From Hypomesus transpacificus (Eukaryota; Chordata; Actinopteri; Osmeriformes; Osmeridae), in assembly GCF_021917145.1 (NCBI RefSeq), contig NC_061074.1, positions 8,477,882 to 8,541,881 on the forward strand: DNA of 64,000 bases, read 5' to 3'. A program made the position numbers and the translations under genes. Of this stretch, positions 13,874 through 48,300 are shown in pieces (the first letter of the stretch is position 1; each line of letters opens with the position of its first letter). The notes beneath the pieces were generated by a model, which did no database searches, was not told the origin of the DNA, and saw only the letters and a list, made by a program, of their open reading frames with translations.

Positions 13874-16800
13874 ATGTCACGGTGGGGGAGGAAGAATGTG
13901 AAGAAGACTCCTGAGGTGATTCGCACTGTGACCGAGGGGCTCAAGTCCCTGTACCGGAAGAAACTGCTGCCCCTGGAGGAGTACTACGGCTTCAATGACT
14001 TCCACTCCCTCAGCCTTGAGGACGCAGACTTTGACAACAAGCCCATGGTGCTGGTGGTGGGTCAGTACTCCACAGGAAAGACCACCTTCATCAAGTGAGT
14101 AACACAGATTTAGCAATTGAAGTTTAGTTTAGTATGTTCCAGGCTGTGTCATGCTCCAGAGCTGAAGTGCTGTGTATGTGTCTGTGTGTGTGTGTGTGTG
14201 TGTGTCAGATACCTGCTGGAGCAGGATGTCCCAGGTAGCAGGGTGGGGCCTGAGCCCACCACTGACTGCTTCACTGCGGTCATGCACGGAGAGGTGGAGG
14301 GGGTCATCCCAGGCAACGCTCTGATCGTGGATCCCATGAAGCCCTTCCGCAAACTCAACCCCTTTGGAAACACCTTCCTCAACAGGTGAGAACAGGATTG
14401 ATTGGCCCAGTGTAGCTGATCCTACCAGGAGAGCATGCAAGATATAGATGAAAGCATTTAGATTATGAGTGAGCAGAGCAATTCGACCCCTCACCCTACA
14501 TCACCCCAAACCACCCACTCCACACCCACCTCCCCCTACACACACATACACATGCCACACACACACACACACTCCTCTCAAGAGCCACAGGGAGGGGGAA
14601 AGATAACAGAAAAAGTGCGTCGGTTTTTTGCTCTGTGGAATTTCGAGTCTTCATGCCAAATTTCAGAGCGGGGAGGGACTTGCCTTATTTGTGGAAAAAT
14701 AGTGAAAGACAGCGATATCACAAGACAGGGCGATGAAAGCTGATTTACTCAGAGGGGTGCTGCAATGTGTGCCATCTCAGTCCAGGTCAGAGGGCTCCTC
14801 GGCCCGGCAGAGACAGATGAGATCAGAGACAAATACTGACAGAGAGAAAGTGTCAGAGACGCGGAAAGTGTCAGAGACAAGGAGGGTGTCAGAGACACTC
14901 CTCGGCTGTGTGGACTGTCTGGGATGCCTTCCCTGCGTACTGTTCCGTTGATATAAACTCTGGCAACTGGTTCATAGAAGCGCTGTTTGCCTATCACACT
15001 CTGGTCATATTAATTACTGAGAAGTTGCCATTGGCAGGGCGGAGTCATCTGGGCTGGTGGGCCTCAGTGGTGACAGGAACACTCCATAAGTTCCCCTCGA
15101 TACGGAGCTGCCTGTAACGCTCTAACTCTGACATCAGTGTTCCAGGGGAGTCCCTCACCACCTACGCTCAGTGTGTTTGTGGGTCGTGTTTGCGTCTCTC
15201 TTTTCCCTTTGACTTCCTGTCTTGGGGGAACAGTGGCCTCGTTAAACGCTTCTGCGGCAGGAAGTGGTGGTGTTGTTCCAAGTCCGACATCATTAGCAGG
15301 GGTGTATTGTTTGATTCTGGCACTGGTGGCCATTTTCCTTCAGGAAACCCACAACATTGAGAGGCCTGGTTCCACACAATAGGCCGACAGGGAGGGGTGC
15401 GGCAGGCTCTCAGTCTGCTTCTTAGATCACTCTCGGTGCCATGATAAGCAACAGCCATGTTGAACATGATTCGCATTCTTTCCATTCATGTCAGTGGGAC
15501 AGTTTCTTCAGAATGTTTGTTTGACCTCAGAGCCCCTCAGCATGTGTGTCCGACCTACGTCAGCGAAGCGTGATGAGCCTGTAATGCTTTTCTCACGTGT
15601 CTCCGTGTCGCAGGTTCCAGTGCGCCCAGATGCCCAATCAGGTCCTGGAAAGCATCAGCATCATCGACACTCCTGGCATCCTGTCGGGGGCCAAGCAGAG
15701 AGTGAGCCGAGGTGAGAGCAAGGGACAAGGTGAGGAGGGGGGGGGCGGAGGGGGGCATGGGCGTGGGGGTGCCGCATCTCCTCACCTCCGCTCACAACCT
15801 CCGTCACCTTCCCCCCCTCACCTGGCTAACCCATGTGACCACCATGTTGCTTCAACCTGTCCCAGTGTGTGACTCTGCAGAAGGGCAGGGAGAGGCATGC
15901 GACTCTCTGGGGTAAGGAGAGGAGCAATGGTTGTAATTAAGAAGAAGGAGAGCGCAGCCAAAAGCTTCCCACAAATTCCTTCAACACATGTGGAAAAGAA
16001 CACTGATCAGGATAAATGCCTCCAAGCATGAAGTATCTGCCATTCTCTTATCATCCACTCCTCCGTTCATCCACCCTTTTTATCCAGTCAGTATCACACA
16101 CATCACAGTGCATGCGAAACTAACAAGAGCAGATATCATAATATAGGAAAAGTGATGGAGAAAACCACTTTTGAGCATATTCTCAGTTTATTGTGTTCTT
16201 GGATTTTAGCCTCTCCGTTTTGGAGTGTTCTCCTTCAGGTCTAGTTTGTTCCCGTTTACTGTGTATACATGAGGGAATGATCCCCGAGGCCGAGCGGGAG
16301 GCAGGATTGTGTAGAGAGATGGACGCACAACAGACAGATGGAGAGAGAGATTAAAAGAACAAGGGAAAGACGAGAGGTGTGAAGGGACTTTGTCCCCCTG
16401 TGTGTGTTAGTCTGTGAATGTTTGTTTGTGTGTTTGAGAGAGAGAGAGAGTGACACGAGACATGAGACATGAGACATGTCAGATTCAAACTGTCCAACTT
16501 GTCACTTTTACCCTCAACCTTTCCCACAGGCTATGATTTCCCGGCCGTGTTGCGCTGGTTTGCTGAGCGCGTGGACCGCATCATCCTGCTGTTCGACGCC
16601 CACAAGCTCGAGATCTCCGACGAGTTCTCTGAGGCCATAGGTGCACTGAGGGGCAACGAGGACAAGCTGCGCGTGGTGCTGAACAAGGCAGACATGGTGG
16701 ACACCCAGCAGCTGATGCGCGTGTACGGAGCCCTCATGTGGTCCCTGGGAAAGGTGTTTGGCACCCCGGAGGTCCTTCGAGTCTACATCGGGTCCTTCTG

Positions 16801-17932
16801 GTCAGAGCCACTCTTGGTCCCAGACAATCGCAAGCTGTTCGAGCTAGAGGAGGAAGACCTGTTTACAGATATCCAGAACCTTCCCCGTAATGCGGCTCTA
16901 CGCAAGCTCAACGACCTGGTGAAGAGGGCACGGCTGGTCAGGGTGGGTAGACGCGGAGCCTTTTCTTTTTCCTTCCTCTCTCTCTCCATCCGTTCCTCCC
17001 TCCTACAAGAATATCTAGAATATATCTAGAAGACAGAGTGTTGTTGCTGACGTTCCTTCCTCTGTTCCCAGGTCCACGCCCACATCATCAGCCATCTGAA
17101 GCAGGAGATGCCCTCAGTCTTCAGGAAGGACAACAAGAAGAAGACCCTGATCTACCAGCTGCCCGTTATCTTCTCCAAGATCCAGCTGCAGCATCACATC
17201 TCCCCTGGAGACTTCCCAGACTGTGCCAAGATGCAGGTCAGTCTAGCGACGCAGATACACAGTCTATCAATGCATTGGCTCTGAAGGTGTTCATCGAGCC
17301 ACAGTCTTTACGGAGAAGGTAATGTGGTCAGGTGGCTGAATGACGCCCTTGTTTCTGACGACGCATTACTTTCCCAACCTCAGGAGCAACTGCTGGTCCA
17401 CGACTTCACCAAGTTCAAGACTCTCAAGCCCAGCCTGATGGCGGCCCTGGACGAGCTTTTGTCCACCGACATCTCCAAGCTGATGCCCCTCCTCCGTCAG
17501 GAGGAGCTGGATGCTGGGGAGCAGCTGGGGGTGCAGGGAGGGGCGTTCATGGGGACCCGCGCCGGGCCCTTCATGGAGGGAGACCCCTTCGCCGAGGAGA
17601 ACGGGCAAGGCGGCGAAGAGGAGGAAGACTGGGTGGTGACAAAAGACAAGCCCAAGTACGACGAGATCTTCTACAACTTGGCGCCCAACGAGGGGAAGCT
17701 GAGTGGCACCAAGGCTAAGGACTGGATGGTGAGCACCAGGCTGCCCAACTCGGTGCTAGGACGCATCTGGAAGCTGTCGGACGTGGACCGCGACGGCATG
17801 CTGGATGATGAGGAGTTTGCCCTGGCCAGCCACCTGATCGAGGTCAAGCTGGAGGGCCATGGTCTTCCCCCTGAGCTGCCTAACCGACTCATCCCACCCT
17901 CCAAACGCAGGCAGAAAGGCTCTGATGCGTAG
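13874..17932 (+). CDS. ehd2: EH domain-containing protein 2 (dynamin-like membrane ATPase)
   Basis: EHD proteins bind ATP, oligomerise on membranes and shape them; EHD2 stabilises caveolae at the plasma membrane. Exons: 13874-14094, 14209-14385, 15614-15711, 16530-16942, 17072-17236, 17384-17932. They give 540 aa, against about 543 in human. The P-loop GQYSTGKTT (residues 63-71), switch IIDTPG, NKAD (217-220) and KPF/NPF loop ([12 protein letters not shown]) are present. The helical region is followed by a linker with GPF and DPF motifs (residues 419-427). The C-terminal EH domain (about 448-535) contains a calcium-binding EF-hand loop, [12 protein letters not shown] (491-502). The C-terminal PPSKRRQKG favours EHD2 over EHD1, 3 or 4. 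It lies next to bicra, as in human. Teleosts often have a second copy, so an a/b suffix cannot be assigned. Confidence 0.96.
14177..14207. repeat. GT dinucleotide repeat at the ehd2 exon 2 acceptor
   Basis: A GT/TG run immediately before the CAG acceptor of ehd2 exon 2. Other short CA/GT runs in the window (7527-7548, 23128-23152, 30147-30170, 34560-34578, 57305-57322, 62530-62568) are of the same kind. Confidence 0.85.
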
Positions 17933-24021: not shown

Positions 24022-26709
24022 TTACTGGTCACACTCTCCCCCAAGTCTTTCCTTCAGAGCTAAGGAAGCTGCTAGTGTTGCCGTGGTGACCCAGCGAGGT
24101 TCACACAGGTAGTTCCGGCTTACATTCAACCTGAGGAAAATCAATGAATGAATGAGGAGGGTGTGGGTACAAAACAGGAATAGGATCTATCACGTTCTGT
24201 ACAGCCTATCGTGCGCTGACTGATTTCACCACCCTTCTTATTTTTTTTACTTTGGATATTGTCATGTGTAGTTCTGCAGCTTGGCAGGAAACCATTGGAA
24301 GTGTGATGTGTGACTCACCACTTAGTGACGTTGCGTGGCAGCGCTGTATTGTTGTGCTGGCAGTGGGCCGTGCGGGAGCAGGACTGGTCCACAGTGAAGG
24401 GGTGCCAGAGGCCTTCTGGACGGGACGGGCGCTCGGGAGACGCCTCATCCGCTTTCTCGTCCCTTCTGTTGTCCTTGACGTCCGGTCTTGCTCGCTTCTC
24501 GTCGTCCTCCTGCGTGGCCTTGTTTGATTCGTCTTGACCGGCTGCTTTGTACGGCGGCTGTTCTCTTCTCTGGATTTGAGAAGTGACTGTGGTAGCACCC
24601 TGAGCCGTCTCTGGGGCTGTGGGAGGACTGACATCTGATGTTGCTGATTGGTCGGTTTGTGTTTCAGCAGCCGTAGGGGTAGTTTTTGGATTGTCTTCGC
24701 AAAACTCCATGAAGGCGTCAAAAGCTGAACACATGGATGTGTCACCCATCTTTGGCATAGTGAAGGGAGTACAGGGACATTTCATATCGGGTATTTCATC
24801 ACCACAGTAAAAATGATATTCAGAGTGGGTGGTTACAGTGACCTGAGTACTGTCTTTTGTCGATTTTTCAGTAGAGTACTTCCTGAATCTTTCCATCAAT
24901 ATCTCGGACTCTGCTTTGTATTTGGCCTTAGTGGTTTTGAGTGGGTCAGGATCACTCTTCTTCTCCTTTATAAGAGTGCTGCTACCCTGCTGGGAACTCT
25001 TCCTCTCTGAGGGAGGCTTGACTGGTTTGGTGAGGCTACAAAGCGCTTCAGTGTTTTCAGGAGGGCCCTGATTTCCATCTATCGGTTGAGCCTTTGACTT
25101 CAGCTGGAGCCGTGTTTTGACTGCGAAGGCGCGTCCTTGCTCTGACTTGGGAGAGCAGTGGGGCACACTGCTGCTAGCTGGTTTGACGGTGCTGTTTGGG
25201 GCGATTCTTGTCCCCTGCGAATCAGCTGCTTTCACCTGAGAGTTCACTTGAGCTTGGTTGCCCAGTTCTTTTTTCTCTTTTGGCACCTGAATCGAGGAGG
25301 GTGTTTTGATAGGTACTGGGATTGTGGTATGTTTGCAGCGCCCTGAGTCTGCAGCCAGTATGGTGTCGACCAGGGTAGCTGTGCTTTGCACCTGGGTAAC
25401 TGGTGGTGTGCTAGGCACTGGTGTAGTGGTGGGGTAATTAAACATAGGGTAAACCATGGATTTAAAAGGCTCTGCATGAACTGACAGTTTAAAAGGCTCA
25501 TGGGCGACTGTCGGTGCATTTGGTGTTGGGATTTCTGAGGTGTTGCTCGATGGCTGGCTTGGCGGAGCACAGCTTGGGTAATGTCCTGGAGGATCCAGAG
25601 CTTGCCTGTTTGATGATTTGGAGACTCGAGCTTTCTTCTGGGCCTTGGCCTCTCTGCGAGCAGCGTTGACCTTAGTTACCGGGCCTTTGACTGCTTCACT
25701 GTAGGGCTCTCCGTTGAGGGCTCTCCTCACCACGGCTTGTCTGTGTGGAGTAGGAGGCGGAGGGATACTCTCTTGTTTCATGATGTACTCAAACCTGTTG
25801 AGGGAGAAATACCAAATCACCTGTAAATGCAAGGTAGATATCGAGCCTCTCGTCACCTCAAAATGTGAACGCACAACATGTCCCTTCACCTTGCTAACAA
25901 TTTGTATATGCATGTCGTATGCATTTATCTCACTTCCATCATGTCAAAAACAGACAAAGATCTAACCTGTTGTCTATCAGCTTCTCAAGGGTCTTCTTGG
26001 TGAGAGGAAAGTTGGATGGCATGTTGAAAGAGAGAGATTTGTCTGACTCGGTGGGTCCTGCAGTCTTCTTCTCACTTTCACCACTAGGGGCAGGAGCTGT
26101 CTCTGGAGGGGCGTTGGTAGTGCTCTGTTCTTTGGTAGGCCCTTGTGTCTTAGCCGGAGCAGTGGAGGTCGTGGTGGGGTTTCTTACGGCCGCCTTCTGC
26201 TCTACCACGTGAGGCTTGGTAGGAGCCTTCTGGGACGTGTCCTTGTGTTGACATGGTGGAGGAGGAGCGTGAACAGAGGTCAAGGCTGCAGGAGTCAGTT
26301 TCTGTGACTTGGAAGATGTTGGATGCTTGTGTTCTGGGGCCAAGGGTTGAACAGGGCTTTTAGTCAGGTCAGGGGTAATGTCAATGACCCCGGGATCTTC
26401 ATGTTGCTTTTTAAGAGAGGCAGGAACAGATAAAAATGTAGGCACCGGTGATGGGGTCCTAGGAAGGTCTTCAGTAAATGGAACTGAGGCCTGTGGACCA
26501 CAAGGACGGTGCCCCATAATAGATAATTTATGTTCGGACATAGGATCAAACTGATCTGAGCAGGGAGGAGCATCTCTGGTTTTGGAGATGGACTTTGTTG
26601 GCTCATCAGTCTTTTCCAGTACCACCGGCTCGATAGTTTTTTCTCTCTCAATATCCTCCCCCAATGATGAATCTTTGGGCTGTTCTTGCTCAGAGTGACT
26701 GTTGCCCAT
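24022..26709 (-). CDS. ggn: Gametogenetin (GGN)-like proline/threonine-rich protein
   Basis: In mammals GGN is a germ-cell protein that binds FANCL/POG and related partners; its role in fish is unknown to me. Exons on the minus strand: 25967-26709, 24319-25794, 24022-24130, giving 775 aa. The middle exon appears to end in a stop (TGA at 24315). However, the sequence AAGTG|GTGAGT there is a strong donor, and splicing to the acceptor at 24131 keeps frame and adds a 35-residue tail (NYLCEPRWVTTATLAASLAL). The N-terminus MGNSHSEQ fits an N-myristoylation signal and the MGNxxSE start I recall for human GGN. Most of the protein is low-complexity Pro/Thr/Ser/Lys. A Cys/His-containing end (VDQSCSRTAHCQHNN) precedes the final exon. 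Position and strand between psmd8 and spred3 match human PSMD8-GGN-SPRED3. Identity rests on synteny, the N-terminus and the tail, not on an alignment. Confidence 0.7.
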
Positions 26710-28243
26710 CCTCTTTCTCTTTCACTCGAGTTTCCTGAGAACATATAATACATGTCTTTCATTGATCTCAAAAGATATTCCCTTCATCACATTTACAGAT
26801 TTACAGTACTGTACAGTAAGTACAGTACAATACAGTAGCTATTCTAAATTAAAACTTCTACTGGTAGTAGTTGCTAACTGTAGCTAGCTGGACTACAGCA
26901 AATTTGCTTATCCTGAATTACCTCGGAATAAACCTCAGATTTGTCATAGCGGTTCCTTCAATTTCGGCATTAGATTACCCGGCAAACGTGGGCTGTATTT
27001 ATGCGAGCTACAAACGTGAAATGAAGTGACACGAAGATGAGCAGGTAAATGTAAACTGGCAGGTAACTGTTGACTGTTGGAATTTGAAAGAAATTACTAT
27101 TTTTTTCTGCCTGGACATTCTTTTTGAGCTCGCGCCGTAGTATACGGAGCAGGAAAGGTCAGTGTTTTTGACTGTTGAGGTAGCTACAAGAAATATAAAG
27201 ATTTGTCAACATCCAGCCCAAGTTTTTCAAAGGCTCTTCGTTAAATGCTCATCATTCCACTCAGAATTGCGCTTTTGTCTGCCATCAATGTCGCTCTCCA
27301 TGGTCCTGAAATGTTACGTCTCGTCTCGGCCCCTTACTGCTAAGTATTTGACCTAGACCTAGCCTCCATGATATAATTGCAGGACCCTTGTTTTATTTTA
27401 AATATGCAACAACACATATATTAGCCTAATAGGGGAAATGAGTTCGCCTCATGAAAAAGTCACCTTTTGTTTTCCCTTTTCTTCAAGTCGAAATATTTGA
27501 GAGTTCTCCATGGTGCTGGAACTTTTGAATTGCCCTTTAGGCTTCAGTACACTTCTTACTACCTACTATGAACTTACTTCTCAGGTAAATTATAAAGATA
27601 TTGGTGATTGATAAATCAGCGGCAGATGTGTGTGTGTCAGACACACGAGTGCTTAGCAGTAAATAGGGGTTAGGGCTATCCCTCGCCATGTGCAGATCGA
27701 TATACTTCCACACGGTAATCCCAAGTCTGCTGAGGAGCTCTGTGGCCACGACTTTGCAAAATATGTAAATATACGGTCATGTCAACAGGCTTACCTCTAG
27801 GTTAACAAGCGACCGCTTAATAGATGGTCTTTATGCGTTCAAATCCCATAGACAACCACAGATAAGTACGGATTCCTATGATTAGTAAGGAAGTACTGGT
27901 TGTTATAACGGTAGACGGAATGGCACGCGGCAGGTAGAGTGAGAAGGGAATAGGGAGGGAGTGATTTGGAGAAAGGGTGAGGGAGGGAGAGGGAGGGAGG
28001 ATGCTGCCGCTGCTGCCAGCGGAAAATGGCTGCTGCAACCTCAAGCCTATCCTGATACACAGAAACGACATAAAGGTGGAGAGAGAAAAGATACGAAAAT
28101 GAGACCAGCGAGTATGATAGAGTGTGAAAGAGAGAGTGAAAGAGTGAGGGTGTGAGTGCGCGCGTGTGTGTTCCGAGAGGGGGGGGATAAAAAAGACAGG
28201 AGACCGGGGGCAGCAAGCTCGAAGCGGCGGGCATCACCGAGCT
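26710..28243. other. Divergent intergenic region between GGN-like and spred3
   Basis: About 1.5 kb between two start codons pointing outward. It must hold both promoters and possibly a non-coding first exon for the GGN-like gene. Upstream of spred3 is a purine-rich GGGA/GAGA stretch (27940-28160), probably 5' UTR/promoter. I see no TATA box I would defend and no coding exon. Confidence 0.5.
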
Positions 28244-31200: not shown

Positions 31201-32595
31201 GTCGTCGTCAAACAGCAGGAAGGAGATGCTTCCAAAACCCATCACCATAGTGACCAGCGAGTCCTCCTCCACCTGCTTCGTGCGACCCGCTACAGAGGAG
31301 TTTAGCTTTGGAGCTGGTCCCACCGTCCCCACCCAGACCCCTGCCCAGGTAGGCCCACCTCACCCGGCAGCCACGCTACCTGCTCACTACACAGGAATGG
31401 AATGTCTCCGGAAGTGAGATGGGTCTCCTTATTTCAAACAACAACAAAAAAAACTGTAATATAATGGGATGCACGGAGGTGATAGTAGGAAAGTCTGTTT
31501 CTCAGTCTGGCTGTGCTCTAGTCATGATGCTGCTATGTTCATCTGCCATCCTTCTCCTCATCTCGTTCCTTCACACAGATCCATGCCAGACCTGCACAGC
31601 ACCAGCTCTCCCAAGTCCCGGCTGTGTTGAACCCCCCTGCGCCCCCACCCCCTCCTCCGGCGCCCCCCACCCCGCCAGTGGGCCCCCCAGCCTCCTCCTC
31701 CCCCTTGTCGCCCCTCTCCCCCACCATCTCCCTGCTGGAGGAGGGCGACCTGCGCAGCCTGGACCCCTGCAAGGACCTGTGGGGCTCCCGGGGCTATGAG
31801 GACTACCGGCGGGCTGGAGCGACAAGGACCATGGTGGGGGGGCTGACAGGGGGCGTGGTGGTGGCGGGCGGGGGCAGCCTCCAGGACAAGTCGGAGCTGT
31901 GCGTCGTGCGTTTTGACAAGGAGCTGGCCGGGGCGGGGACAGCAGGGTGTGAGGTCACAGTCAGCCTGGATAGCAAAGGCTCCCAGCACCTGTCCTCGCC
32001 CTCGCCCACCTGCATGTCCATGCCCAACGCCGTGTCAGGTGTGTCCTCAGGTGCCGGCTCGCCCCAGGAGACGGGCAAGGGCTCGCCCTCTCCCTGCTGC
32101 ATCCACACCTCGCTGGCCACGCCCCGATCACGGACTCGTAAGCGAGGGGGAGGGGCCGCCGCCGCCGCCGGAAGCGACCCGGGGGCCGTGGCCGTCTCCC
32201 CTGACGACGACAGTCCGTGTCCTCAGGGCTCCTCGTGCTCGTCCCGCTGCGTCTACTGCCGCTCCGTCTTCAGCGCCTCGGAGAATGGGCGGGGCCGCTG
32301 CCGGGACGCCCCCGACCCCGCCCTGCACTGCCTCCGCCAGTGGACCTGCGTGTGGTGTGCGGAGAGCCTGCTCTACCACTGCATGTCGGACTCCGAGGGC
32401 GAGTTCTGGGAGCCGTGCTCCTGCGAGGACTCCATGGGGGGCCACCCTCACCCTCTCTGCTGCGCCCGCTGGCTGGCCCTCCTGGTCCTGTCCCTCTTCG
32501 TGCCCTGCATGTGCTGCTACCTGCCTCTGCGCGCCTGCCTGCGCTGTGGGGAGAGGTGCGGATGCTGCGGGGGAAAGCACAAGGCTGTGCGGTGA
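28244..32595 (+). CDS. spred3: Sprouty-related EVH1 domain-containing protein 3
   Basis: SPRED proteins sit at the plasma membrane and suppress RAS-RAF-ERK signalling downstream of receptor tyrosine kinases. Exons: 28244-28254, 29981-30146, 30680-30848, 30985-31046, 31184-31348, 31579-32595. They give 529 aa; human SPRED3 is about 410. Domains: EVH1 (about residues 4-116, [17 protein letters not shown] and KVNPIFHHW), then a Ser-rich linker. A proline-rich stretch and a KIT-binding-like segment with GYEDYRR (263-269) come next. Last is a Cys-rich Sprouty domain (about 405-525) ending [12 protein letters not shown]. The first exon carries only 11 coding bases. Exon 5 has two acceptors 10 bases apart; only the upstream one keeps frame. 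The linker is longer than in mammals. The neighbouring GGN-like and psmd8 genes support SPRED3 over SPRED1 or SPRED2. Confidence 0.93.
30181..30617. repeat. 42-bp minisatellite (about 10 copies) in spred3 intron 2
   Basis: A tandem array whose unit contains CTGTGTCACCTGACTAACAT and TACTGTCACCTGACTGACC, with a second unit type carrying GATGGACATG. It fills most of the intron between exons 2 and 3. The 183-codon minus-strand open frame (repeating [10 protein letters not shown]) is an artefact, because 42 is divisible by 3. Confidence 0.97.
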
Positions 32596-35290: not shown

Positions 35291-38200
35291 TCACCTGCCA
35301 GAGTGCATGTGCTGGCGCTTGTGCTTGAGGATTTCAGTGGAGGTAAGGTTCAGATCTTCATCACACACGTCACAGTGGTACAGCCTGGTCAGACTGGGCG
35401 CGCAGGATGAAGTCGGCTTCACAGTCTCCTCTTCTGCAAAACAACCCCCCCCCACGTTTACTCATTTAGTCACACCTCTTAACCTATCCAGTCTATACAT
35501 TCAAATAGACATATCAACTGGAGGATGGGTGAGTCGAGGGTAATATTTGTAGATCAAATTTGTATAGCCCTTTTTACAAGCAATGTCACAGAGGGCTACA
35601 CATACGCCCATAGAACTGCCCCTCAACCAACCTCAACCCTCGTGGAAGACAAGGAAAAACTCACTAGAGGAGAAAAAATTTGATTTGTTGGCTGTAATAA
35701 AAAAAAGGAAAACGAGAGGCGGAGCCTGTCCTACCCTGTCCTTGCTGCAGTTCCCCTGGAGGCCTGCAGGAGGCCTCGTGGTGCATGCGCTCCAGGGGCG
35801 TGAGGGGCAAGTAGAGGTCACAGTTGGGGCAAGTCCAGAAGGTGCGCAGGCACTCGCTGTACAGATCCTTAGAGTCCTAGAAACACAACACAGAAAGCTC
35901 AGATCCTAAGGCAGCATTCCCCCCCGTTACATTCACTCACCCGGAAAAGAAACACCTTGACACAAAGCGAACAGTGTTTCAGCTGGAGGAGAAACTCACG
36001 CTCAGACAGTTGTAGGTGAAGTAGCTGGCCACCCTCAGGCCTCCTTTAATGGGGTCAGGCTTGGCTTCCACTCCAGGGAACAGGGGGTTTGGAGCCTGCG
36101 TTTCCCCCAGCCCGGACGGGGCCTGGGGCCCGATGTACAGGGTGGTGGTCTGGAGGGCGGTGAGCCTCCTCAGGCTGTAACTGACCTGGGGCCGAAGAGA
36201 AGATCGTCACCAAACATCTGATGTCACACACACAGACAGACACCCCACGAGGGGGACGTTCAGAGGGCCTGGCGGTTGCCGTGGCTACCTCGGTGTAGAG
36301 CAGGAAGCGGACGAGGCTCTCGCTCAGCTTCTCCAGGTCCCTGCGGGACCCCCCCGCCCCGACCAGCCCACCGGCCTCGCCCTGCCTCAGCTGGGCCTGC
36401 AGGAGGCGCTCCCAGTCCGCCCGGAGCGTGAGGGCGGTGGCCAGGACCTTCAGGGCGCCCTCCCCTTCCTTCAGACACAGCTCCAGCCAACCGTCCACCA
36501 CCAGGCGAGTGCAGTCAGCGTTGCTGTCTACAGAGTTAGCCACCAGGAGAAGAGCCTGGGGGGGGAGGGGTTAACACGGCACCGATGATTGGTCAGACAA
36601 CACAGCGGCGCCGACACACCAGGGGGGGCTGCGGCCGTCCTGTCGTGAGGAGACTGTTGTTGTGGTCGTGGGGAACCAGGGACGGGGACCCCTGGGACTG
36701 ACCTGCAGGGCCGGGACGCGCACACAGTTGGACACGTAAGGTCTGTTGGTCTCCAGCAGAGTCACAAACGCCAGGAGCTGGTGCCTGCTGCTCTCAATCT
36801 GATCCGGCCCTGCAGGACGAGAGACACCCACACACAGAGAGAGAGAGAGAGAGTCAGAACAAGAGGATTATACCCTACCAGCCTGATCTTAATAGAGCGA
36901 GGGGGAAGAGGAGGGAGGTTTACCCATCTCTCTGGACTCCTGCTCAGGGACGTGCAGCACCTCAGGGTCGCTGGCGAACACGCTGGTGGGGTGGATGACC
37001 ACGCCCGGCTTGTTCCTCGTGTGGAAGACCTAGAGCGTGGCCCGCACGCATGAGCATTCAGACACACAGAGCCACAACCAAGACACTGGACATGGAAACA
37101 CAGGGAGGGGGGTCAAACTAGGACGGCCGACCTGCTCGGAGTCCTTGCGCGTGGCGTTGTGCTCGTCGGGCAGTGCCAGCTGTGGGTAGAGGCCTCGGCA
37201 GAGCAGCAGCTTGAGCAGGGCCTGTTGGCGTGACGACAGGTCCTGACTGGCGCCGGTCGCCTCCTTGAGCTCCGACACGTTGTGGCGCAACTTGAACTTC
37301 ACTTCCTGTAAGCACCCCCCCCCCCCCCCGAGGACCACACCATGAAGAACTGATTCCCGCTTCGCCAGTGCCAAAATGTCAACCCCGATCGGCTGAACAC
37401 TTCGGCAATGACACACGTCAGCTACGAATGAAGTTGTGTGCGTGTCGCCTTGACAAGACACTGTTGGACAGTGTTTTCTTCTCTGGGAGGGCTAACCTGT
37501 ATGTCTATGTTCTGTCCGGACTTGTCCTTGTCTTTCTTGTCTCTGCCCGTGTCCTCCGCGTCTGACCCGGAGGAGTCCCCCTCCTGCCCCTCCTCTAGCC
37601 TCAGGACCTTCCGCTTGCCGCCCTCCTGCAGGTCGTGCTCCCTCTTCATCTGATGCAGCTTCCTCCTCTCCGTCAGCCGGTCCCTGCGCTGCCCCCGGTC
37701 CCCACCGGAGGGCGCCCCACGCTCTCCGTCCAGCAGGCCGTGACTCTTCAGAAGCTCCTGTCACCAGAGCAGATGCTACCAGACAAGGTTCTGTGCAACA
37801 CACTGGTCTAGGCGTGCAGACATGTAAACATGCCGGTTCTTTGAGTGAAAATATTTCTATTTTTTAAAGTCTCTTTTACCTTAAATTGGCGGCGTAGGTT
37901 GACCATCTCGTACAACCTCTGTTGCTCCAGGCCCCTCCTCCTGCACCATTTCCTGGAAGCATCGCCCCTCTCCCCTTTCACCTGAACAAGTAACGGACGA
38001 ACAACAGACCCCTATCAGCTGAACACTCAGGCGTTTCATTTCATCATCCACCCTGCGCTTGCAGACAAGGCGAACGGCCATGTTAGAAGGCTTCCTCTCT
38101 TCACCGACCTGCACCCAGGCATTGAAGGTGTTGAGCAGAGTGAAGGGGTCTCCCTGGTTGCTGAGCAGGGGCGTGCGGGCCGTAGCGCAGTCAGGGTTGT

Positions 38201-41200
38201 GCTGGGCGCTGCGCAGGAAAGGCGACTGGACACTGAGAGCCGCTGCCACCGTCAGCACAGGCTCCACCAGGTTAAACACGGAGCCCAGCACCAGCATCTT
38301 CCCTGGGAAGCAGACGCCACGCACAAGTCACAGGTCAAGGGGTCAGGAGGAGCCGCCCAGGGGCCAGAGTCCATGCTGTAGGGACCTTACCTATGACCAC
38401 ATCCACAGGCAGCTGCGCTAGCAGGCTGCCTATGTTAGTAAGGTCCCCGTAGGAGTCCAGCGCCCCCTGCTGCCTCAGGTAGGTCACTGCAGTCTGGATG
38501 CTGGACACGGGAGGAGGGTCGATGAAAACAAACGACAGTGGGTCACCCAGGCTCATACTCTTCATCTGCAAAGACAGAGATTACATCATCCTTCCTCTCC
38601 ATGTTGTTTGAGTACATTCACATTCCAATGAATTGGAGATCTATATCACTATGTTCAGTCCCAGCAGTCTGTGTGATAGAAACAGCACTGCCCATCTTCC
38701 AATACCTGGAGGACCAGGGAGTCCAGAGCCACACGGTGGATCTCGGGGATGGGATAAGGGGCGAAGGCGTCGTAGTCAGACTCTGCGTAGAGGCGATAGC
38801 ACACGCCCGGCCCGGTCCTCCCCGCCCGGCCCTTCCTCTGCTCAGAGCTGGCCCGGCTGATCCAGAACTCCTGGAGACGCTGCATCTTGGCCTTGGGGTC
38901 AAAACTCATCTCCTTCACCTTCCCTACAGGAGCGCACAACATCATGAGTACAGCCTACCACCTCCCCCTGAGAGAACGCGTACAGCTGTCCTGACGTGGT
39001 GCAGTGTCAGAGCACAGCAGCCTCACCAGTCAGCCTCTGGGTCAACTTTGGTTGAGATCTGGTTGAGAACACTTCAATTTTTAGATGTTCCTCGATTATC
39101 CTCTTTTACCACAACCACTCTCGTCATGACCCCACCCCCCTCCCCTCGGTCCGTCAGCAAACCTCCCCCTACCACCTTGACAATGTAACACATTTTCGCG
39201 GGAAACCCTGACTTGAAATGGCACTAGGCGACTGACCTGAATCTACGACGAAGCGAACGCCATCGATGGTGACGGAGGTCTCAGCGATGTTAGTGGAGAT
39301 GATGCACTTCCTCACCCCAGGTGGAGCAATGTCAAACACCTGCAGGACAGGCACACGGCTCAGTCTGAAAGATAACCATCCATGATCCTAGTGCTGTCGG
39401 TGCTTTAAGGAACTCATCTCATTTAAACTGAGAGCATTCCTACCTAGGCCGTAGCCATGGAGTCAACATTGGGGGGGGACGAATAAATTGTTTTATGATA
39501 ATTTCGGACAGCGTGCGTAGTTGCCTGTCGTAGCGTAGCACATTTATATTTTATATCAATATTTTGGGGGGGACATTTTGACATGTGTCCCACCCAATAC
39601 GTATTACGATTACGGCCCTTGATTCCTACAAAACAATCTAAGCAGTTAAGAGACTCCAACAGAAGTAAGAACTAACTCGAGGAGGTGGGATCACACGCGA
39701 TGCCGTGAGGGTTCGTTGCAATCCGTGTTCATCTGTGGTGGCCCTAGCTTACCTTGTCCTGCTGGGCCAGGGACAGGGTGCTGTGCAGGGGCAGGACTAT
39801 CCAGCGGCTGGTGTGTGTGCCGTACACCTGGCAGGCCTCCTGGATGGTGGCGATCTCTGCCACGCCGCTGAGGAAGATCAGCAGGTCGCCGCGCTCCTCG
39901 GGGGGGTAGCGCTGGTCGATGCCCTGCAGCACGCGCAGGTACGGCCGCGGGTCCAGCTTCTCCAAACGGGATGCCTGCTCTTCTTGGGGGATGGGCTGGT
40001 AGATCACCTGAGCGAGGGGGGGAGGGGGCGGGGGGAGATGGAGGTGAGGAGACCAGGGAGATATCTACTCTCTCCTGTTCTCTCCTCATCCTGCTTTAGG
40101 TAGATAACATAGCTTAATGAAAGAGAAGCCACTTACATTTACATTTAGTCATTTAGCAGACGCTAAATGACAATGAAAAATGAAAAAATGTAACAAATGT
40201 GTTCAAATGGGAGAACATCAAGCAAATTAAGGACGATCCATCACATCTAGTCAGTTTATACAGTACAATTACATTTAGTCATTTGGCAGACGCGCTTATC
40301 CAGAGCGACTTACAGTAAGTACAGGTACATTCCCTCGAGGCAAGTAGGGTAGAGTGCCTTTCCCAAGAACACAACGTAATTTGGCTTTGAACCAACAACC
40401 TTCTGATTACTAGCCTAATTCCCTAACCGCTCAGCCACCTGACCCCATAAATAGAAAAAGGTGTTTTGACGTTCTGTCCTCACCTGTATGGGGTAGAGCC
40501 TCCCGGGGACCTGCAGCACGGGGGCGTGGTTGAAGTAGTCGGAGAAGAGTTTGATGTTGATGGTGGCAGACATGAGGACCAGGCGGAGGTCAGGGCGGGT
40601 GCCCAGCAGCGAGCGCAGGACCCCCAGGAGGAAGTCGCAGTGGAGATGCCTCTCGTGGACCTCGTCTACGATCAGAACCTGGTACTGAGCCAGCGCCCCG
40701 TCCTGCTGGATCTGCCGGAGCAGAAGCCCCTCCGTCAGGAACAGCAGCTTGGTGGCCGCTGTGCGGGTGGTCTCAAATCGGATCTGGTACCCCACCTGGA
40801 AATCAGAACGATCGTGGCGGTCACAAAGGGTTGGGTCCCTGAACATATCCCTGTGTGCTGTCACATATACATTTGCCTTGAGTAAAATGCAGTTCAGCAC
40901 TAAAGATAAGCAATCGGTCTAAAATGTGGCAAATTGCTAACACTACCGGAAAGATGTGAGTATCTTTAAACAAAGATGCTTACCTTGGAGCCATACTGGT
41001 TGAGACTCTCAAAGCTGACCCTCTTGGCGAGGGATATGCAAGCGATGCGCCTGGGTTGCGTGCATGCTATTTGACTGAAGCCAGAGGACAGAAGGTACTG
41101 AGGCACCTGAGTGGATTTTCCGCAGCCTGTGTCGCCCGCCACCACCACCACCGAGTTGGTGCGAACCAGGTCCACGATCTTATCCTTGTACTGGTAAATG

Positions 41201-41691
41201 GGGAGATTTTTCTGATCCTTGCGTAGTTTAGCTAGTTTCGCAAAGCTCTGCTTCTGATTGAAGTCCAGGAAGTGCAGGAGGGCCAGACGACAGTCAGCTA
41301 TCTCCTGAGTCCCCGGGCCTGACGAACTCTGTCTGTGTCTGTGGTCCGAACGGCCAAGCCGTTCCTCTACATCCCTCGTGCATACCGACACATTGATCCG
41401 ATAGCGGGCGTCATACTCTTTAGGAAGACCCATATCTACACTTCCGCTGCCAGACTTTCTCTTCTCTTTCCCCTCCTCCATGTCTACTTTCCTGCTGCCC
41501 CCGACCCCTGACATGTCCTTCTTTGCCTTGAACCTCTGGAAGCGTTCAAAAAAGGCCCAGAATTCCTTGTGTTCAGGGCTGCCTGACCGAATGTAGTCAT
41601 GTTGACGAAAGAAGATCTCATCTAGCTGGGCACGGCAGTGTGGGCTATCCCAGTCCCAGCTCCGGTTTTCCCTCCTCTTGTCTGAATCCAT
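35291..41691 (-). CDS. dhx34: Probable ATP-dependent RNA helicase DHX34
   Basis: An SF2 DEAH-type helicase that promotes UPF1 phosphorylation in nonsense-mediated mRNA decay. Sixteen exons, 5' to 3': 40984-41691, 40484-40795, 39753-40007, 39237-39339, 38706-38923, 38391-38565, 38109-38302, 37880-37981, 37497-37757, 37132-37305, 36924-37029, 36703-36809, 36289-36555, 36000-36185, 35735-35876, 35291-35433. They total 1150 aa; human is 1143. Visible motifs are [10 protein letters not shown] (about 186-194), Ia TQPRRIA, II DEVHER (280-285), [27 protein letters not shown] and [14 protein letters not shown]. The winged-helix/ratchet and OB-like regions follow. The C-terminal zinc-finger-like pairs CPNC...H and YHCDVC...H-x3-H match human. 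The ATG at 41691 has a good context; the open frame upstream begins with GTG only. No break is seen. Confidence 0.97.
39443..39619. mobile_element. short element with GGCCGTA terminal inverted repeats in dhx34 intron 3
   Basis: It begins GGCCGTAGCCATGG and ends TTACGGCCC, so the ends are inverted copies of about 7-8 bases. Internally, GGGGGGGACGAAT and GGGGGGGACATTTTG face CCCACCCAATACG. This looks like a non-autonomous DNA transposon or fold-back element. The family is not identified. Confidence 0.45.
40134..40172 (-). repeat. SINE 3'-tail fragment
   Basis: The plus strand reads TTACATTTAGTCATTTAGCA then GACGCTAAATGA, which is the reverse complement of the conserved SINE tail. The tRNA-like head is absent. 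Confidence 0.7.
40197..40446 (-). repeat. tRNA-derived SINE with 3' extension in dhx34 intron 2
   Basis: Minus-strand copy. The head at about 40380-40446 has a Pol III A-box-like TGGCTGAGCGGT. The body contains a GGCAAGGCACT-like motif and the tail GCGCGTCTGCCAAATGACT. A further 66-bp segment at 40197-40262 recurs at 48534-48600. The B box has decayed to TTGGTTCAAAGCC. Confidence 0.8.
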
Positions 41692-42103
41692 TTCTATTCT
41701 CCTAGCAAGCTGTACACTCACTGTGCTTGATAATTGTCTATATTTACATACATGTCAACACTCTAAACTTTAGTTCGTACGGGTTAAAAGTAATCAGTAT
41801 TCACAAACTAATCGCTAGACTTTTTAGTCGCTTTTACCCGTTCTAATTTGAAAACGAATATCTGCGATAATGGGGTGGCGGAACGAAAATACGGAAGCAC
41901 AATTTCCGGTCCATCACAGATTAGGTCCGTTAAAAATCAGAACTTGATATATTTTGGTCCGTTAAGTGAAAGCTTTTAATTAATAAAAACGAAGAATGAG
42001 CTCACACACCACAAGTGTTTTCATAAATTATCTATAAACACTATTACAAACTTTACAGACATATCTTGATCCTCATCTGCTATAATAATTTGTCCTTTAC
42101 AGT
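41692..42103 (-). promoter_or_regulatory. dhx34 promoter / pla1a 3' UTR interval
   Basis: Only 412 bases separate the pla1a stop (42104) from the dhx34 ATG (41691) on the same strand. The interval must hold the end of the pla1a transcript (a minus-strand ATTAAA occurs near 41978) and the dhx34 promoter/5' UTR. No specific factor site can be defended. Confidence 0.5.
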
Positions 42104-44280
42104 TCACAATTTTAGATGAACTTCAACGCTCTGGTTTTCAACTGCCAAAATATTCTCAGCCCTGTAAATACTCCTGTTGGAAAATTATTCAGAAAAAATG
42201 TATTTACGAGGAACAAACGTGTGGGCTATGTTATTTAAAAGATTCTGTAAAAAAAAATGAGCATGGACTGAACATGGACATTATTTACCCCTTGAATCTA
42301 GGAAGTTGAATGAGCAACAGTTGACCAATGAAAATGTCCTTTTTCCTCCATTGGAAGTAGAGAAGACGTTGAGAAAAGAACTTCAGAGACATTGTTTTAA
42401 AGTTTTCTGCACGCTCCACTGAAACCATGAACTTGTACACATGTTGTGGGTAAAAGTCCAGAACCCCGGAACTAGGCACAAACAAAATGGGTTAATACAA
42501 GTTTATATGAAAAAGTCAAATCAAGAAGTAAAGACTGAACCTCACCCAGACACCAGCATGCTATTTGTTTGGGTCTTGTCACCCTTTAACTGAATGTATA
42601 ACTGTGCCGTCAATGAGTTGTTTCCTTCTATATGAAGCTCTAACAGAAATGGACTAACTGCAGGAGACAGACATTATTATTTCAGGATTAATCTTCATTA
42701 TGATGTGACAGAATTCAACTGTTTCATCTAGTTATGTCCTCCTAACCACAGAATGGAGCCTTTGCTGTGATGCTCAGGAAAGCAGTCAAGGGTCGGATCG
42801 GGATTGGACGCTCGACGGGCAACCAGCTGATGTCATATCCTTTAAGGAAAGAAAAATGATGAGAAAGTTGTATTCATCCCTGCGTACTCGTCAAATGCAG
42901 CGTACTCGAGCATGTAAATGAAGGAGATGACAGTGCGGGACCGACCCAGCTGTGGGCACACAGCGAGGTCAGGGAGGTGGCAGTCAGTACAGGCAGCATT
43001 GTAGAAGTCTTCGACTCCACGGCAGGGTATCGCCGTGAAAGGGCAGGAACCATGGATGGAGCTGGTGAAGATCTTATAGGCCCACTGATGGCTGCAAAGC
43101 AGGTATTCCTCCCCTGCAGACAATACGAGAGCCACTCTCCAGTTCCTGAACAGACGCACCATTGTGACATCAGGCTATTACTATAACCTCACATGCTCAC
43201 TTTTCAGTAGACCTGGAGGGCATCCAGGAAGCTGATGTCCTCGACTGATGTAGAAATCAACATGGCCCACTGGTCCGGAACCCCCTAGGGCAGCCACAGG
43301 CTCGTTCGCTGGGAGGAAAGAATTTAATTAGCTGACAAGTGGGTAGCTAGGATTACAATGAAAGTACAATGGTTTCTTTAGAAATTAGTCTTACGATTGA
43401 AGTTGGTGTGAATCACATCCACATATTGTGCATCTGTGTAACTCAAAGAGAAACTTATGTTTGCCTCGGAAAACACTGGCGCAAAAGGATCCAGTCCTGG
43501 GAAATCGAAAGAGAAACGTTACGTGACATTGGATGGAGGCTGTCGTAATCAGGTGTAACGGAAGAATTTGAGTTTCAGTACCAGTGATTCTTCCTATGGC
43601 TCCATGAAGACATTTCCCAGCCACACCCGCCACATGGGCTCCAACACCAAAGCCAATCAAGTGAAACCTCCCAGGAGAAGACCCCTGATCCTATGACAAA
43701 CAATCTCATATTTCACAGACAATATCTCGACGCACCGAGACAGCAGGCTCAAAGCGACAGTGGAACAACAACCTACCAGCAACGCCCAGATGACCTGTGC
43801 CAGTCTCTCCCCGACCTGACGAGCACCCTCTGTTATCTCCTGTTCCGGAGCAGCCAGCCAGTCGGCAGCCAGCACGTTGCTCAGCCCTGTCGCCAGCAGC
43901 TCCCCTGCCATGGTCCTCACCCAGCTGGGCTGTACCCCCGGAGGCCTCCTGCCAGGCACCACTACCACCGTTGGGCTGTCCGGATGCCAGGGCAGGCTCG
44001 GCAGTTCTGCTGGGACCTCGTATGGAGATCCACAGGGGCTCCGCCCCGCTGAGAACCTCAGCAGCCTCAGGTCTGGAGAGGAGCGGACGGCGGAGAGGAA
44101 GTCAGAGCAGGGTGTGGAGACACCCGTAGCAGAACCAGACAGGAGGTAAAGGACCAGCAGCCACTGACCCCAGACCTGGCCCTGACCCCGGGCATGGCCC
44201 CAGACCTGGCCCCTGCCTGCTGTAAGCTGTCCTGTAACTCTCCCTGCTCTGTCCAGCACAGCATACACCATCATGTTCAT
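42104..44280 (-). CDS. pla1a: Phospholipase A1 member A-like protein, probable catalytically dead lipase
   Basis: PLA1A is a secreted lipase-family enzyme that deacylates phosphatidylserine. Exons, 5' to 3': 43777-44280, 43582-43690, 43395-43496, 43201-43308, 42946-43113, 42747-42839, 42546-42657, 42289-42471, 42104-42173. They join in phase to 482 aa; human is 456. PLA1A-type landmarks are PSCDF-like CSDF, QPSW, GLDP (Asp 207, the catalytic acid), VDVIHT, GHVDFY, CSH (His 283, the catalytic base), APFC and the C-terminal RKKDIFIGQ...VEVHLKL. The nucleophile motif GxSxG reads GFGVG (residues 181-185), with Gly in place of Ser (codon GGT). The usual HGF oxyanion segment reads PGR (109-111). 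The frame is otherwise intact with good splice sites, so it is not an obvious pseudogene. The start is uncertain: about 40 residues precede the hydrophobic signal-like stretch WLLVLYLLSG. Confidence 0.85.
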
Positions 44281-45389: not shown

Positions 45390-48300
45390 TCACACGCCGG
45401 TCTTTTCCTGGATCCAGCCGCGGAACTTGGTGACCGTTGAGTAGATGCCAGGCTTGTCCTTGCGGGCACAGCCATCTCCCCAGCTAACCACTCCAGCCAG
45501 GAACATGTGACTACCATCAGGGCTGGAGAGAGGGCCACCGGAATCCCCCTGAGAACAACATGTAGTCATTTAGCAGATGCTCTTATCAAGAGCGACTTAC
45601 AGTAAGTACAGGGACATTCTCCCCTGAGGCAAGTAGGATGAAGTGCCTTGCCCAAGGACACAACGTCATTTGGCACGGCCGGGAATTAAAATCAACAACC
45701 TTCTGATTAATAGCCCGATTCCCTAACCGCTCAGCCATCTGACCCCCCAGAACAAGAAGAGGACATTCCTGTCAGGTGGTGTGCAGGATGTGACAGTGGA
45801 CTGTAGGGTGTGGAGGCCCGGTGATGTACCTGACACGCGTCGACGCCGCCATCCAGCTTGCCAGCGCACATCATCCGGGAGGTGATCTGGCCGCTCATCA
45901 GGGCGTTACACACAGTGCTGTTAATGATGCGCACCTTCGCCTTCTGGAGCACGGTGGCACCGCTTCCTGGAACCAACGACACGGATTCGCTGAAATGACT
46001 TAACATTCGGCCCTGCTAAATATATATATATATATATAACATACAAAACACATGTGGCGGGCGTATTCATTCACCAAGGAATTAATGGTCTACAGCAGTG
46101 GTTCTCAATCCTGGTCCTCGGGACCCCCTGCCCTGCATGTTTTAGACATTTGCCTCCTCAAACACACCTGATTCAAATTAATGGGTCGTTATCAGGCCCA
46201 TTTATTTGAATCAGGTGTGTTGGAGCAGGGAAACATCTAAAACATGCAGGGCAGGGGGTCCCGAGGACCAGGATTGAGAACCACTGGTCTCCAGTACCAA
46301 CAGTCCTGTGTTGTGCAGTGGGACTCACCGCCCTCGCGCGTGGCGCCCCAGCCTGTGATCCACACAGAGTTGCCGGCGGCGAAGAAGTGCTGTGGTGCCG
46401 GCAGACAGATGGGCCTGATGTAGTCGCTGTAGGACACAGGGCTGTCTAACTCCATTAGGGCGATGTCGTAGTCAAACGTGTAGCTGTTGTAGTAGGGGTG
46501 GGAGATAATCTGTTTCAGGTTCCTCTTTTCTACCTTGTTCCCAAACTGTTTCTGGATGTGAAGGCCCAGATAGGCTTCCCACACTCCCGGCCGGGAGAAT
46601 CTGGAAGGAGACAGAGAGGGAGACGGAGACATTCATTCTCAGGTTGACGTGTAAAACATCCAATCGGACGTCAGGCTGTGGTGAAGGCTTAGCATGGCGA
46701 GTGAAGTGGAGTTTGTAGCTACTTGATCTTGGTGTCGTCCTGCACACAGTGCGCAGCGGTGACCAGCCAGCTGTTGCTGATAATGGACGCCCCGCACACG
46801 TGACCCATGTTCTTGATGTGGAGGCTGACCTGCCAGGGAAACTCTCCCTCCTCTGCATTCTGCCCGCCTACAATGCGGGATGTCTTGAACAAGCTCTTCC
46901 CACAATCTGCCCGACAAGACAATCAGCATCACAGATCATTCTAGAACCAGCACAGTACATGCACATCACAGTAGTCACGTCTCGTAGTTGACGTGCGAGT
47001 TATTATACGAGAACAGGGGGTGTCCTACCACAGAAGGCCTCGTCTGATCCATCTTCACAGTCTTTGACATCATCACACTCCGGGTTCAGCTTGCTAACGC
47101 ACATGTTGTTTTGACACTTGTAGGTGACGTCAGTACACCTCACGTCGTTTTCTGGGCAAAAGAGGAGAAGAAAAACTTAAGTGACCTTGCGTCCGTGGAG
47201 ACTGACCAATCGCATCGGAGCCCACGCTCTGGCATAGCGACCACGGCAGTCCTCACTTCTGCCGCAGTCCAGCTCGTCCGTGCCGTCTCCGCAGTCGTCT
47301 TTGCCGTCGCAGCGCTTCTTCTCCGACACACAATTTCCGTTCTGACAGGTGGTTTCCCCGGACTTACACCCACCTGAGGGGGAAGACAGAGAGACACCAT
47401 GAGAAGACGGCAAGAGATGTGTTTCATTCCTTAAAGTACTCCTATTAGTGCTCGTCTTACAAAAGGTGACTCCCTTACAGTTCAATTCGTCCGTGTTGTC
47501 GCCGCAGTCGTCGACTCCATCGCACAGCCAGAACTTGGGTTTGCAGAGGCCGTTGTTGCACTGGATCTGATTCTCCTTGCACTCTGCACAGACGTGAGCT
47601 CATGAGCTTGAGGTGGAGTCTTCACAGGTAACAGACTGTCACAGGCAGTCACAAAATGTGCATAAAATGGTGTCCACTCACGGCAATCCATCTCGTCGCT
47701 CAGGTCTCCGCAGTCGTTCCAGCCGTCGCATTTGAGATCCTGGCTGATGCAACGTTTGTTTCTGCACTGGAACGCCTTGGGGCAGGCTGTGGAGGAGATG
47801 GAGAGACCAGGTCTGGGAGGTGAGACACGGTCCTCAACAGGCAGTCAGAACAGTCAGGGAAAAACTGTCACGTCCTGAGTGTTTTTTTTTAATATTCTTC
47901 TGGGACTCACGGTCTGTGGAGGCAAAGGCTTCATACTCGGCACTGAAGCCGCGGTCGACGTAGGAGGCGTCGGAGAAGAACAGCACCGACATCAAGTTGG
48001 TGTCACTTGTAACCACCTGCACAGTCGTCTTCTCTCCGCACATCCTAATGAATGTGCGTACACACACACGTATAAGCCTAATATCCAAGTGGCTATACAC
48101 CCATAGCAGCTATACATAGTAGCCGGAAACTCTGGTTTCAACCTCCAAACTCTAACATCATGGGGGTGTTCACCGTTGCTTGTTGATCTCCACGTAGTCC
48201 TTCTTACAGTCTACCTCATTCTGTCCTGGCTCAGACAGGAGGAACTTGATGAAGCGCACCTTCACCATTTTACCTGCAGGGACCTGAGCAAAGTACAGAC

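What the first reader, a model, noticed from the sequence alone, without database searches (positions are those of the whole stretch)
43582..44280. PLA1A homologue that has lost its nucleophile serine and oxyanion loop
The reading frame at 43627-43641 (minus strand) gives GFGVG where lipases have GxSxG; the serine codon is GGT, one transition away from AGT. The usual HGF segment of the oxyanion loop reads PGR (about 43948-43956). Catalytic Asp (GLDP) and His (CSH) remain, the frame is open across nine well-spliced exons and the C-terminus is conserved. That suggests a maintained but non-catalytic secreted lipase-fold protein, perhaps a lipid-binding or decoy form, rather than recent decay.
Basis: partly seen in the sequence, partly recalled or inferred. 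Interest (0 to 1): 0.8.

Follow-up and report, generated by a model that had tools for sequence, protein, structure and literature searches.

The report
Fish lipase relative missing its catalytic serine
One of several lipase genes in what is probably a fish genome has lost the amino acids needed to cut fats, yet its reading frame and fold-forming residues look kept, which suggests a protein that may bind lipids or partner proteins instead of digesting fats.

Summary
On the minus strand a nine-exon, 482-residue frame (44280 to 42104) encodes a pancreatic-lipase-family protein (Pfam Lipase E 1.8e-53). The nucleophile Ser is Gly (GFGVG, codon GGT 43648-43646), the oxyanion HG is PG (43956-43951) and the Leu after the Ser is Val. 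Asp and His remain. All 7 other lipase genes modelled from this genome have Ser (AGT/AGC) and HG.

Corrections: it is not the PLA1A orthologue. A pla1a with intact catalytic motifs lies elsewhere (C23, L044; groups with human PLA1A 99/99), as do two LIPH-type genes (C20, C8). The window gene falls in the PLA1 clade (97/94) on a long branch whose place inside is unresolved; its intron pattern resembles C20/C8. It combines a PLA1-type 12-residue lid with a long beta9 loop and lacks both cysteines of the C-terminal disulfide.

It keeps 34 of 45 family-invariant residues; each relative misses 0-3 of 45-48. Simulated neutral decay rarely gives that many losses with an open frame (at most about 0.005 from stops alone). 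Most likely it is a maintained, non-catalytic secreted lipase-fold protein. No orthologue, RNA or reads could be examined; function is inferred.

The parts
43777..44280 (-). coding exon 1 as modelled: N-terminus with hydrophobic stretch (WLLVLYLLSG), N-terminal Cys pair, PGR in place of the HGF oxyanion segment (43956-43948). The true start is unsure; a 3' splice site that looks good by eye (cttatctgcag) ends at 44317, so an upstream exon may exist
43582..43690 (-). coding exon 2: GFGVG elbow (43654-43640), Gly codon GGT at 43648-43646 where all modelled relatives have Ser
43395..43496 (-). coding exon 3: GLDP with the catalytic-type Asp (43491-43489)
43201..43308 (-). coding exon 4: beta9 loop, six residues longer than in the five PLA1 relatives, and first lid Cys (43222-43220)
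42946..43113 (-). coding exon 5: end of the 12-residue lid, second lid Cys (43096-43094), CSH with the catalytic-type His (43090-43088), two further disulfide pairs
42747..42839 (-). coding exon 6
42546..42657 (-). coding exon 7 (start of the C-terminal domain)
42289..42471 (-). coding exon 8; donor GTAAAT in phase 2, as in the LIPH-type genes
42104..42173 (-). coding exon 9 with stop TGA; matches the last LIPH-type exon in phase, its disulfide cysteines absent

Best explanation
The gene encodes a protein with the pancreatic-lipase fold that should no longer act as a serine hydrolase, because the nucleophile is Gly and both segments that form the oxyanion hole are altered (HG to PG, GxSL to GxGV; which residues form the hole is recalled from lipase structures). 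The alpha/beta core, the lid disulfide, the Asp, the His and a C-terminal domain are kept. Most likely it is secreted and works as a lipid-surface binding protein: it uses the still-formed pocket and loops to hold or carry phospholipid or fatty acyl chains, or to occupy surfaces and partners that its active PLA1A/LIPH-type relatives use, without cutting. Shown here: the lost residues, the open frame and GT-AG introns, PLA1-clade membership, retained fold residues and cysteines. Inferred: secretion, glycosylation, folding, long maintenance without catalysis, and the lipid-binding role.
For: Lost catalytic parts. Fold and family: Pfam Lipase E 1.8e-53; PDB chains of pancreatic lipase-related protein 2, LPL and others from E 2e-39. 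Clade: 97/94 with PLA1A and LIPH rows. Retained structure: 34 of 45 invariant residues, all six cysteines that are invariant in the catalytic domain plus four more at shared positions, three N-glycosylation sequons. Paralogues with intact catalytic motifs in the same genome. Neutral-decay simulation. A short lid with a relatively long beta9 loop is also described for wasp venom lipases with incomplete triads, and non-catalytic lipases serve as insect yolk proteins (PMC7240578, abstract text and passages seen).
Against: No expression, protein or ligand evidence. No orthologue seen, so the Gly could be young or confined to this genome. 11 of 45 invariant residues are lost, not all of them catalytic, which also fits relaxed constraint. 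Both C-terminal disulfide cysteines are gone and some splice donors look weak. The N-terminus, and so the signal peptide, is uncertain. The branch is long (2.25 against a median end branch of 0.69).
Confidence: 0.62

Rival explanations
1. A gene in early decay: function was lost recently, the frame has not yet been broken, and the changed residues are neutral.
For: 11 of 45 invariant residues lost against 0-3 of 45-48 in each relative; C-terminal cysteines lost; long branch; splice donors weak by eye.
Against: Simulated neutral drift (nine divergences from 0.02 to 0.3, 6000 runs each) gives 9 or more changes at 43 invariant sites together with no stop with a probability of at most about 0.005, and below 2e-5 if 0.1 indels per substitution are assumed. 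It assumes that all the losses fell in the neutral phase; a slower change under other constraint followed by recent decay is not excluded.
Confidence: 0.17
2. A pseudoenzyme that works by protein contact: it pairs with or competes against active lipases, their receptors or chaperones, rather than binding lipid itself.
For: Three other PLA1-clade genes and four further lipase genes with intact catalytic motifs are present in the genome; lid, core cysteines and a C-terminal domain are kept. LPL-type lipases form dimers (recalled, no call).
Against: No interface could be tested; I have no evidence that LIPH or PLA1A form dimers.
Confidence: 0.13
3. A hydrolase or acyltransferase with a different catalytic residue.
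For: Asp and His of the triad are kept; an extra Cys lies at residue 195.
Against: No Ser, Thr or Cys within the elbow GFGVG; the oxyanion segment is changed too.
Confidence: 0.05
4. A sequence or assembly error at the catalytic codons.
For: Reads were not available.
Against: Two separated motifs in two exons are both changed, with changed neighbours, in an otherwise open frame; the window has no N stretch.
Confidence: 0.03

Closest known systems
Vertebrate PLA1 subfamily: LIPH (mPA-PLA1alpha), LIPI, PLA1A (PS-PLA1)
   Same: Fold, clade (97/94), 12-residue lid, an intron (alignment column 376, phase 1) found in the 4 PLA1-clade genes and in none of the 4 other lipase genes modelled, six catalytic-domain cysteines.
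   Different: Nucleophile Ser and oxyanion HG lost, beta9 stretch six residues longer, C-terminal disulfide cysteines lost, 26-32% identity to the 5 PLA1 rows. LIPI itself was not compared.
Insect lipase-like yolk proteins and non-catalytic venom lipases
   Same: Lipase-family proteins with an incomplete triad that are expressed; short lids with relatively long beta9 loops reported in wasp venom lipases (PMC7240578, abstract text and passages).
   Different: Insect lineages; no sequence of theirs was compared here. That Drosophila yolk proteins carry Gly at the Ser position is recalled, from no call.
Pancreatic lipase-related protein 1 (PLRP1)
   Same: Vertebrate lipase-family member known for little or no activity (recalled); matched at 7e-33 (2ppl).
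   Different: Keeps the triad (recalled) and belongs to the pancreatic branch (recalled).

Membership tests
Pancreatic lipase gene family (PF00151), fold membership | Significant match to the family profile over the catalytic domain | tested here: met
   Pfam E 1.8e-53, 182.5 bits against a cut-off of 27, profile positions 69-336 of 336; query of 404 residues without N-terminus and last exon
Pancreatic lipase gene family, as active enzyme | Ser-Asp-His triad in GxSxG | tested here: not met
   GFGVG; Asp and His present, Ser absent
Pancreatic lipase gene family, as active enzyme | Oxyanion HG segment and Leu after the nucleophile | tested here: not met
   PGR and Val; invariant His and Leu in the 11 other rows
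Vertebrate PLA1 subfamily (PLA1A/LIPH/LIPI) | Groups with PLA1A and LIPH to the exclusion of LPL and pancreatic lipases | tested here: met
   97/94 with 12 rows, long branch
Vertebrate PLA1 subfamily | Short lid of 12 residues (PMC9031518, PMC3482443, passages) | tested here: met
   12 residues between the lid cysteines; 12-13 in the 5 PLA1 rows, 22-24 in the 6 others
Vertebrate PLA1 subfamily | Short beta9 loop (13 against 18-19 residues, PMC9031518) | tested here: not met
   His205-Asp221 stretch 23 residues; 17 in all 5 PLA1 rows, 22-23 in the 6 others
LIPH | Disulfides 233-246, 270-281, 284-292 and 427-446 (PMC3482443) | tested here: not met
   cysteines of the first three pairs present, of the fourth absent on both sides
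PLA1A (PS-PLA1) orthologue | Is the gene that groups with PLA1A of other species | tested here: not met
   C23 groups with human PLA1A 99/99; holding the window gene together with them is not rejected (p-AU 0.455), but it would then be an extra copy
LIPH-type gene | Groups with LIPH rows; no intron between the N-terminal exon and the elbow exon | tested here: inconclusive
   grouping neither found nor rejected (p-AU 0.203); intron pattern as in C20 and C8
Lipase-like yolk or lipid-carrier protein (way of working) | Binds lipid without hydrolysis; kept by selection | not testable with these tools
   no expression, ligand or orthologue data

The most novel reading that the evidence does not exclude
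An old, maintained vertebrate pseudo-PLA1 lineage, distinct from PLA1A, LIPH and LIPI, with a hybrid short-lid and long-beta9 loop set, that has become a secreted lipid-binding or lipase-modulating protein, a vertebrate parallel to the insect yolk-protein lipases.
Probability: 0.35. Interest if true: 0.62.

Novelty: new variant of a known kind. Interest (0 to 1): 0.45.

Why it matters
Lipase-family proteins without a complete triad are described in insects, where some became yolk proteins (PMC7240578). In the listings of my ten paper searches I saw no report of one in the vertebrate PLA1 subfamily; several listings were capped (for example 20 of 2,744, 20 of 23, 12 of 30), and subscription papers are not held, so this is weak evidence of absence. 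If orthologues share the Gly, it would give a natural case for asking what a phospholipase fold does once catalysis is gone, beside three relatives with intact motifs in the same genome.

Tried and rejected
Orthologues: the genome tool states that this genome has no relatives there. A scan of the prokaryote genome collection for stray host DNA found no relative (20 pattern matches, none confirmed). So the clade-wide check, dN/dS and relaxed-selection tests were not possible. I did not compute pairwise dN/dS, because I expected synonymous sites to be saturated between paralogues of 26-32% protein identity; that is a judgement, not a result.

Exact PLA1A orthology: rejected, since C23 is the pla1a. 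Close recent paralogue in the genome: none seen among the 25 matches (best candidates only). Placement as LIPH-type or PLA1A-type: the tree cannot decide (p-AU 0.203 and 0.455). The intron at alignment column 135 (phase 2) in C23 and those at 136 (phase 0) in C10, C19 and C270 have different phases, so I did not use them as one shared ancestral intron.

An eight-exon model with the stop at 42285 was dropped when a phase-2 donor and a last exon were found. The small N-terminal exons that my spliced aligner proposed for the window gene, C23, C19 and others are not trusted; the C-terminal exons of C23 and C19 are also uncertain. The aligner penalises stops, so open frames in the paralogue models are partly by construction.

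Neighbour label: my notes and the paper search call the downstream helicase DHX35. That label does not fit: the DHX35 chain scored only 1.8e-19 while other DEAH helicases reached 4.8e-30. I now take it for DHX34, by recall only. One search was therefore run with a wrong gene name and could not be repeated (10 of 10 searches used).

No Rfam match at the gathering threshold and no tRNA in the window.

Simulation: kappa 2.5, 43 of the 45 invariant columns (2 are gaps in the window protein, and both count among the 11 lost, hence the threshold of 9), start from the present window sequence; the indel rate of 0.1 per substitution is assumed.

Full report
What is there. The reported region is exons 1 and 2 of a minus-strand gene. 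Reading the sequence and testing splice sites gives nine coding exons: 44280-43777, 43690-43582, 43496-43395, 43308-43201, 43113-42946, 42839-42747, 42657-42546, 42471-42289 and 42173-42104. The frame is 482 residues plus stop. All eight introns start GT and end AG. The N-terminus is the weakest part: the modelled start gives about 39 residues before the hydrophobic stretch, and a splice acceptor that looks good by eye ends at 44317, so an upstream exon may exist. The protein matches Pfam Lipase at E 1.8e-53 (that query of 404 residues lacked the N-terminus and last exon) and pancreatic lipase-related protein 2, LPL and similar solved structures.

The lost residues. The Asp of GLDP and the His of CSH are kept. 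All 7 paralogues have AGT or AGC at the Ser codon and CAT or CAC at the His codon.

The family in this genome. A Pfam search of the whole genome gave 38 matches (best candidates only, so a lower bound), which I grouped by eye into eight loci: the window (C15), C10, C19, C270 (LPL-type), C11 (pancreatic type), C23, C20 and C8. Spliced models were built for the other seven. In a 12-row tree C23 groups with human PLA1A (99/99) and C20 and C8 with human LIPH (100/99). The window gene falls with these in the PLA1 clade (97/94), on an end branch of 2.25 against a median of 0.69. Its place inside is open: holding it with the LIPH rows costs 1.32 log units (p-AU 0.203), with the PLA1A rows 0.21 (p-AU 0.455). 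Adding the printed branch lengths, the other five PLA1 rows lie 1.03 to 1.64 from the same fork, so the window gene has changed about 1.4 to 2.2 times as much. The intron at alignment column 376, phase 1, is found in the window gene, C23, C20 and C8 and in none of C10, C19, C270 and C11. Between the N-terminal exon and the elbow exon the window gene has no intron, as in C20 and C8; C23 has one. That leans towards the LIPH side but is one character. PMC3482443 (passages) gives ten coding exons for LIPH and eleven exons for PLA1A.

Loops and cysteines. The lid between Cys 268 and Cys 281 has 12 residues, the PLA1 value given in PMC9031518 and PMC3482443 (passages seen); the PLA1 rows have 12-13 and the other rows 22-24. 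The stretch with the beta9 loop (His 205 to Asp 221 of LIPH) is 23 residues, against 17 in all 5 PLA1 rows and 22-23 in the 6 others. Ten cysteines at shared positions are kept; one more (195) is alone. The cysteines of the LIPH disulfides 233-246, 270-281 and 284-292 are present; those of 427-446 are absent on both sides. How the remaining four pair is inferred; the C8 model lacks one of them. Three N-glycosylation sequons are present.

Kept or decaying. Of 45 columns invariant in the 11 other rows, the window protein keeps 34. As a fair control, with the window left out, each of the other 11 rows misses 0-3 of the 45-48 columns invariant in the remaining 10, where the window protein misses 11-12. 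Of 86 columns invariant in the 5 PLA1 rows it keeps 52. The 11 losses include His 76, Ser 154 and Leu 155 (LIPH numbering) but also Tyr 117, Arg 192, Phe 200, Asn 225, Gly 226, Arg 250, Thr 320 and Cys 446, so they are not confined to catalysis. Under neutral drift from the present sequence, the joint chance of 9 or more changes at 43 invariant sites and no stop peaks at about 0.005 (divergence 0.08-0.1); with an assumed 0.1 indels per substitution it stays below 2e-5 over the nine divergences tried. Considered alone, an open frame is not telling at low divergence: at 0.02 substitutions per site it stays free of stops in 37-39% of runs. Together the results speak against plain neutral decay and for continued constraint of another kind. 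They do not date the loss of Ser, and cannot exclude a shift of constraint followed by very recent decay.

How it most likely works. With the nucleophile gone and the oxyanion hole altered the protein should not hydrolyse esters (established lipase chemistry). The retained core, lid disulfide and C-terminal domain suggest a folded protein, and its family is secreted; lipid-surface binding is the most economical role left. The closest precedents are insect: PMC7240578 (abstract text and passages seen) reports wasp venom lipases with incomplete triads, relatively long beta9 loops and short lids, cites an average of 10% of insect neutral and acid lipases without the catalytic motif, and describes non-catalytic lipases used as yolk proteins. 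The match in loop lengths is notable but no insect sequence was compared here. A role through protein contact with active lipases is the main functional rival.

Neighbours. Upstream in transcription lies a matriptase (ST14)-like serine protease (best PDB match Suppressor of tumorigenicity 14, 2.5e-84); downstream a DEAH-box RNA helicase. I first labelled it DHX35, but the DHX35 chain scored below many others; I now take it for DHX34, by recall. A second ST14-like gene is on C5 near 2.75 Mb, and no lipase match was listed on C5. That the genome is a teleost is my inference from gene content and size.

Limits and verdict. No orthologue, transcript or read was available. Ten paper searches (listings, some capped, one with the wrong helicase name) and passages of three papers showed no report of this gene.

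Noticed in passing
window 40271-40446 and 45558-45746: Two copies of a dispersed repeat (62-nt and 57-nt matching blocks, 90-91% alike, about 5.3 kb apart), SINE-like in size, one on each side of the lipase gene.
   Followed up: partly
window 46096-46286: An inverted repeat with 90-nt arms, 93% complementary, 11 nt apart, within the matriptase-like gene region.
   Followed up: no
window 45390-47844: Matriptase (ST14)-like gene on the minus strand with LDL-receptor class A and trypsin domains; a second ST14-like gene on G000:C5:2752625-2753942.
   Followed up: partly
window 37000-41754: DEAH-box RNA helicase gene on the minus strand; best PDB matches HrpA and DHX29, DHX35 much lower (one exon tested); DHX34 by recall.
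   Followed up: partly
window 31528-32592 and 16466-17929: A Sprouty-domain frame and an EH-domain (EHD-like) gene on the plus strand.
   Followed up: no
window 24318-26721: Long adjacent open frames on the minus strand (541 and 259 aa) without a Pfam match at E 0.001.
   Followed up: no
G000:C20:4792152-4792292 (outside L042): A trypsin-like protease exon lies about 15 kb from the LIPH-type gene on C20, while a matriptase-like gene sits beside the window's lipase; possible shared ancestry of the two neighbourhoods.
   Followed up: no
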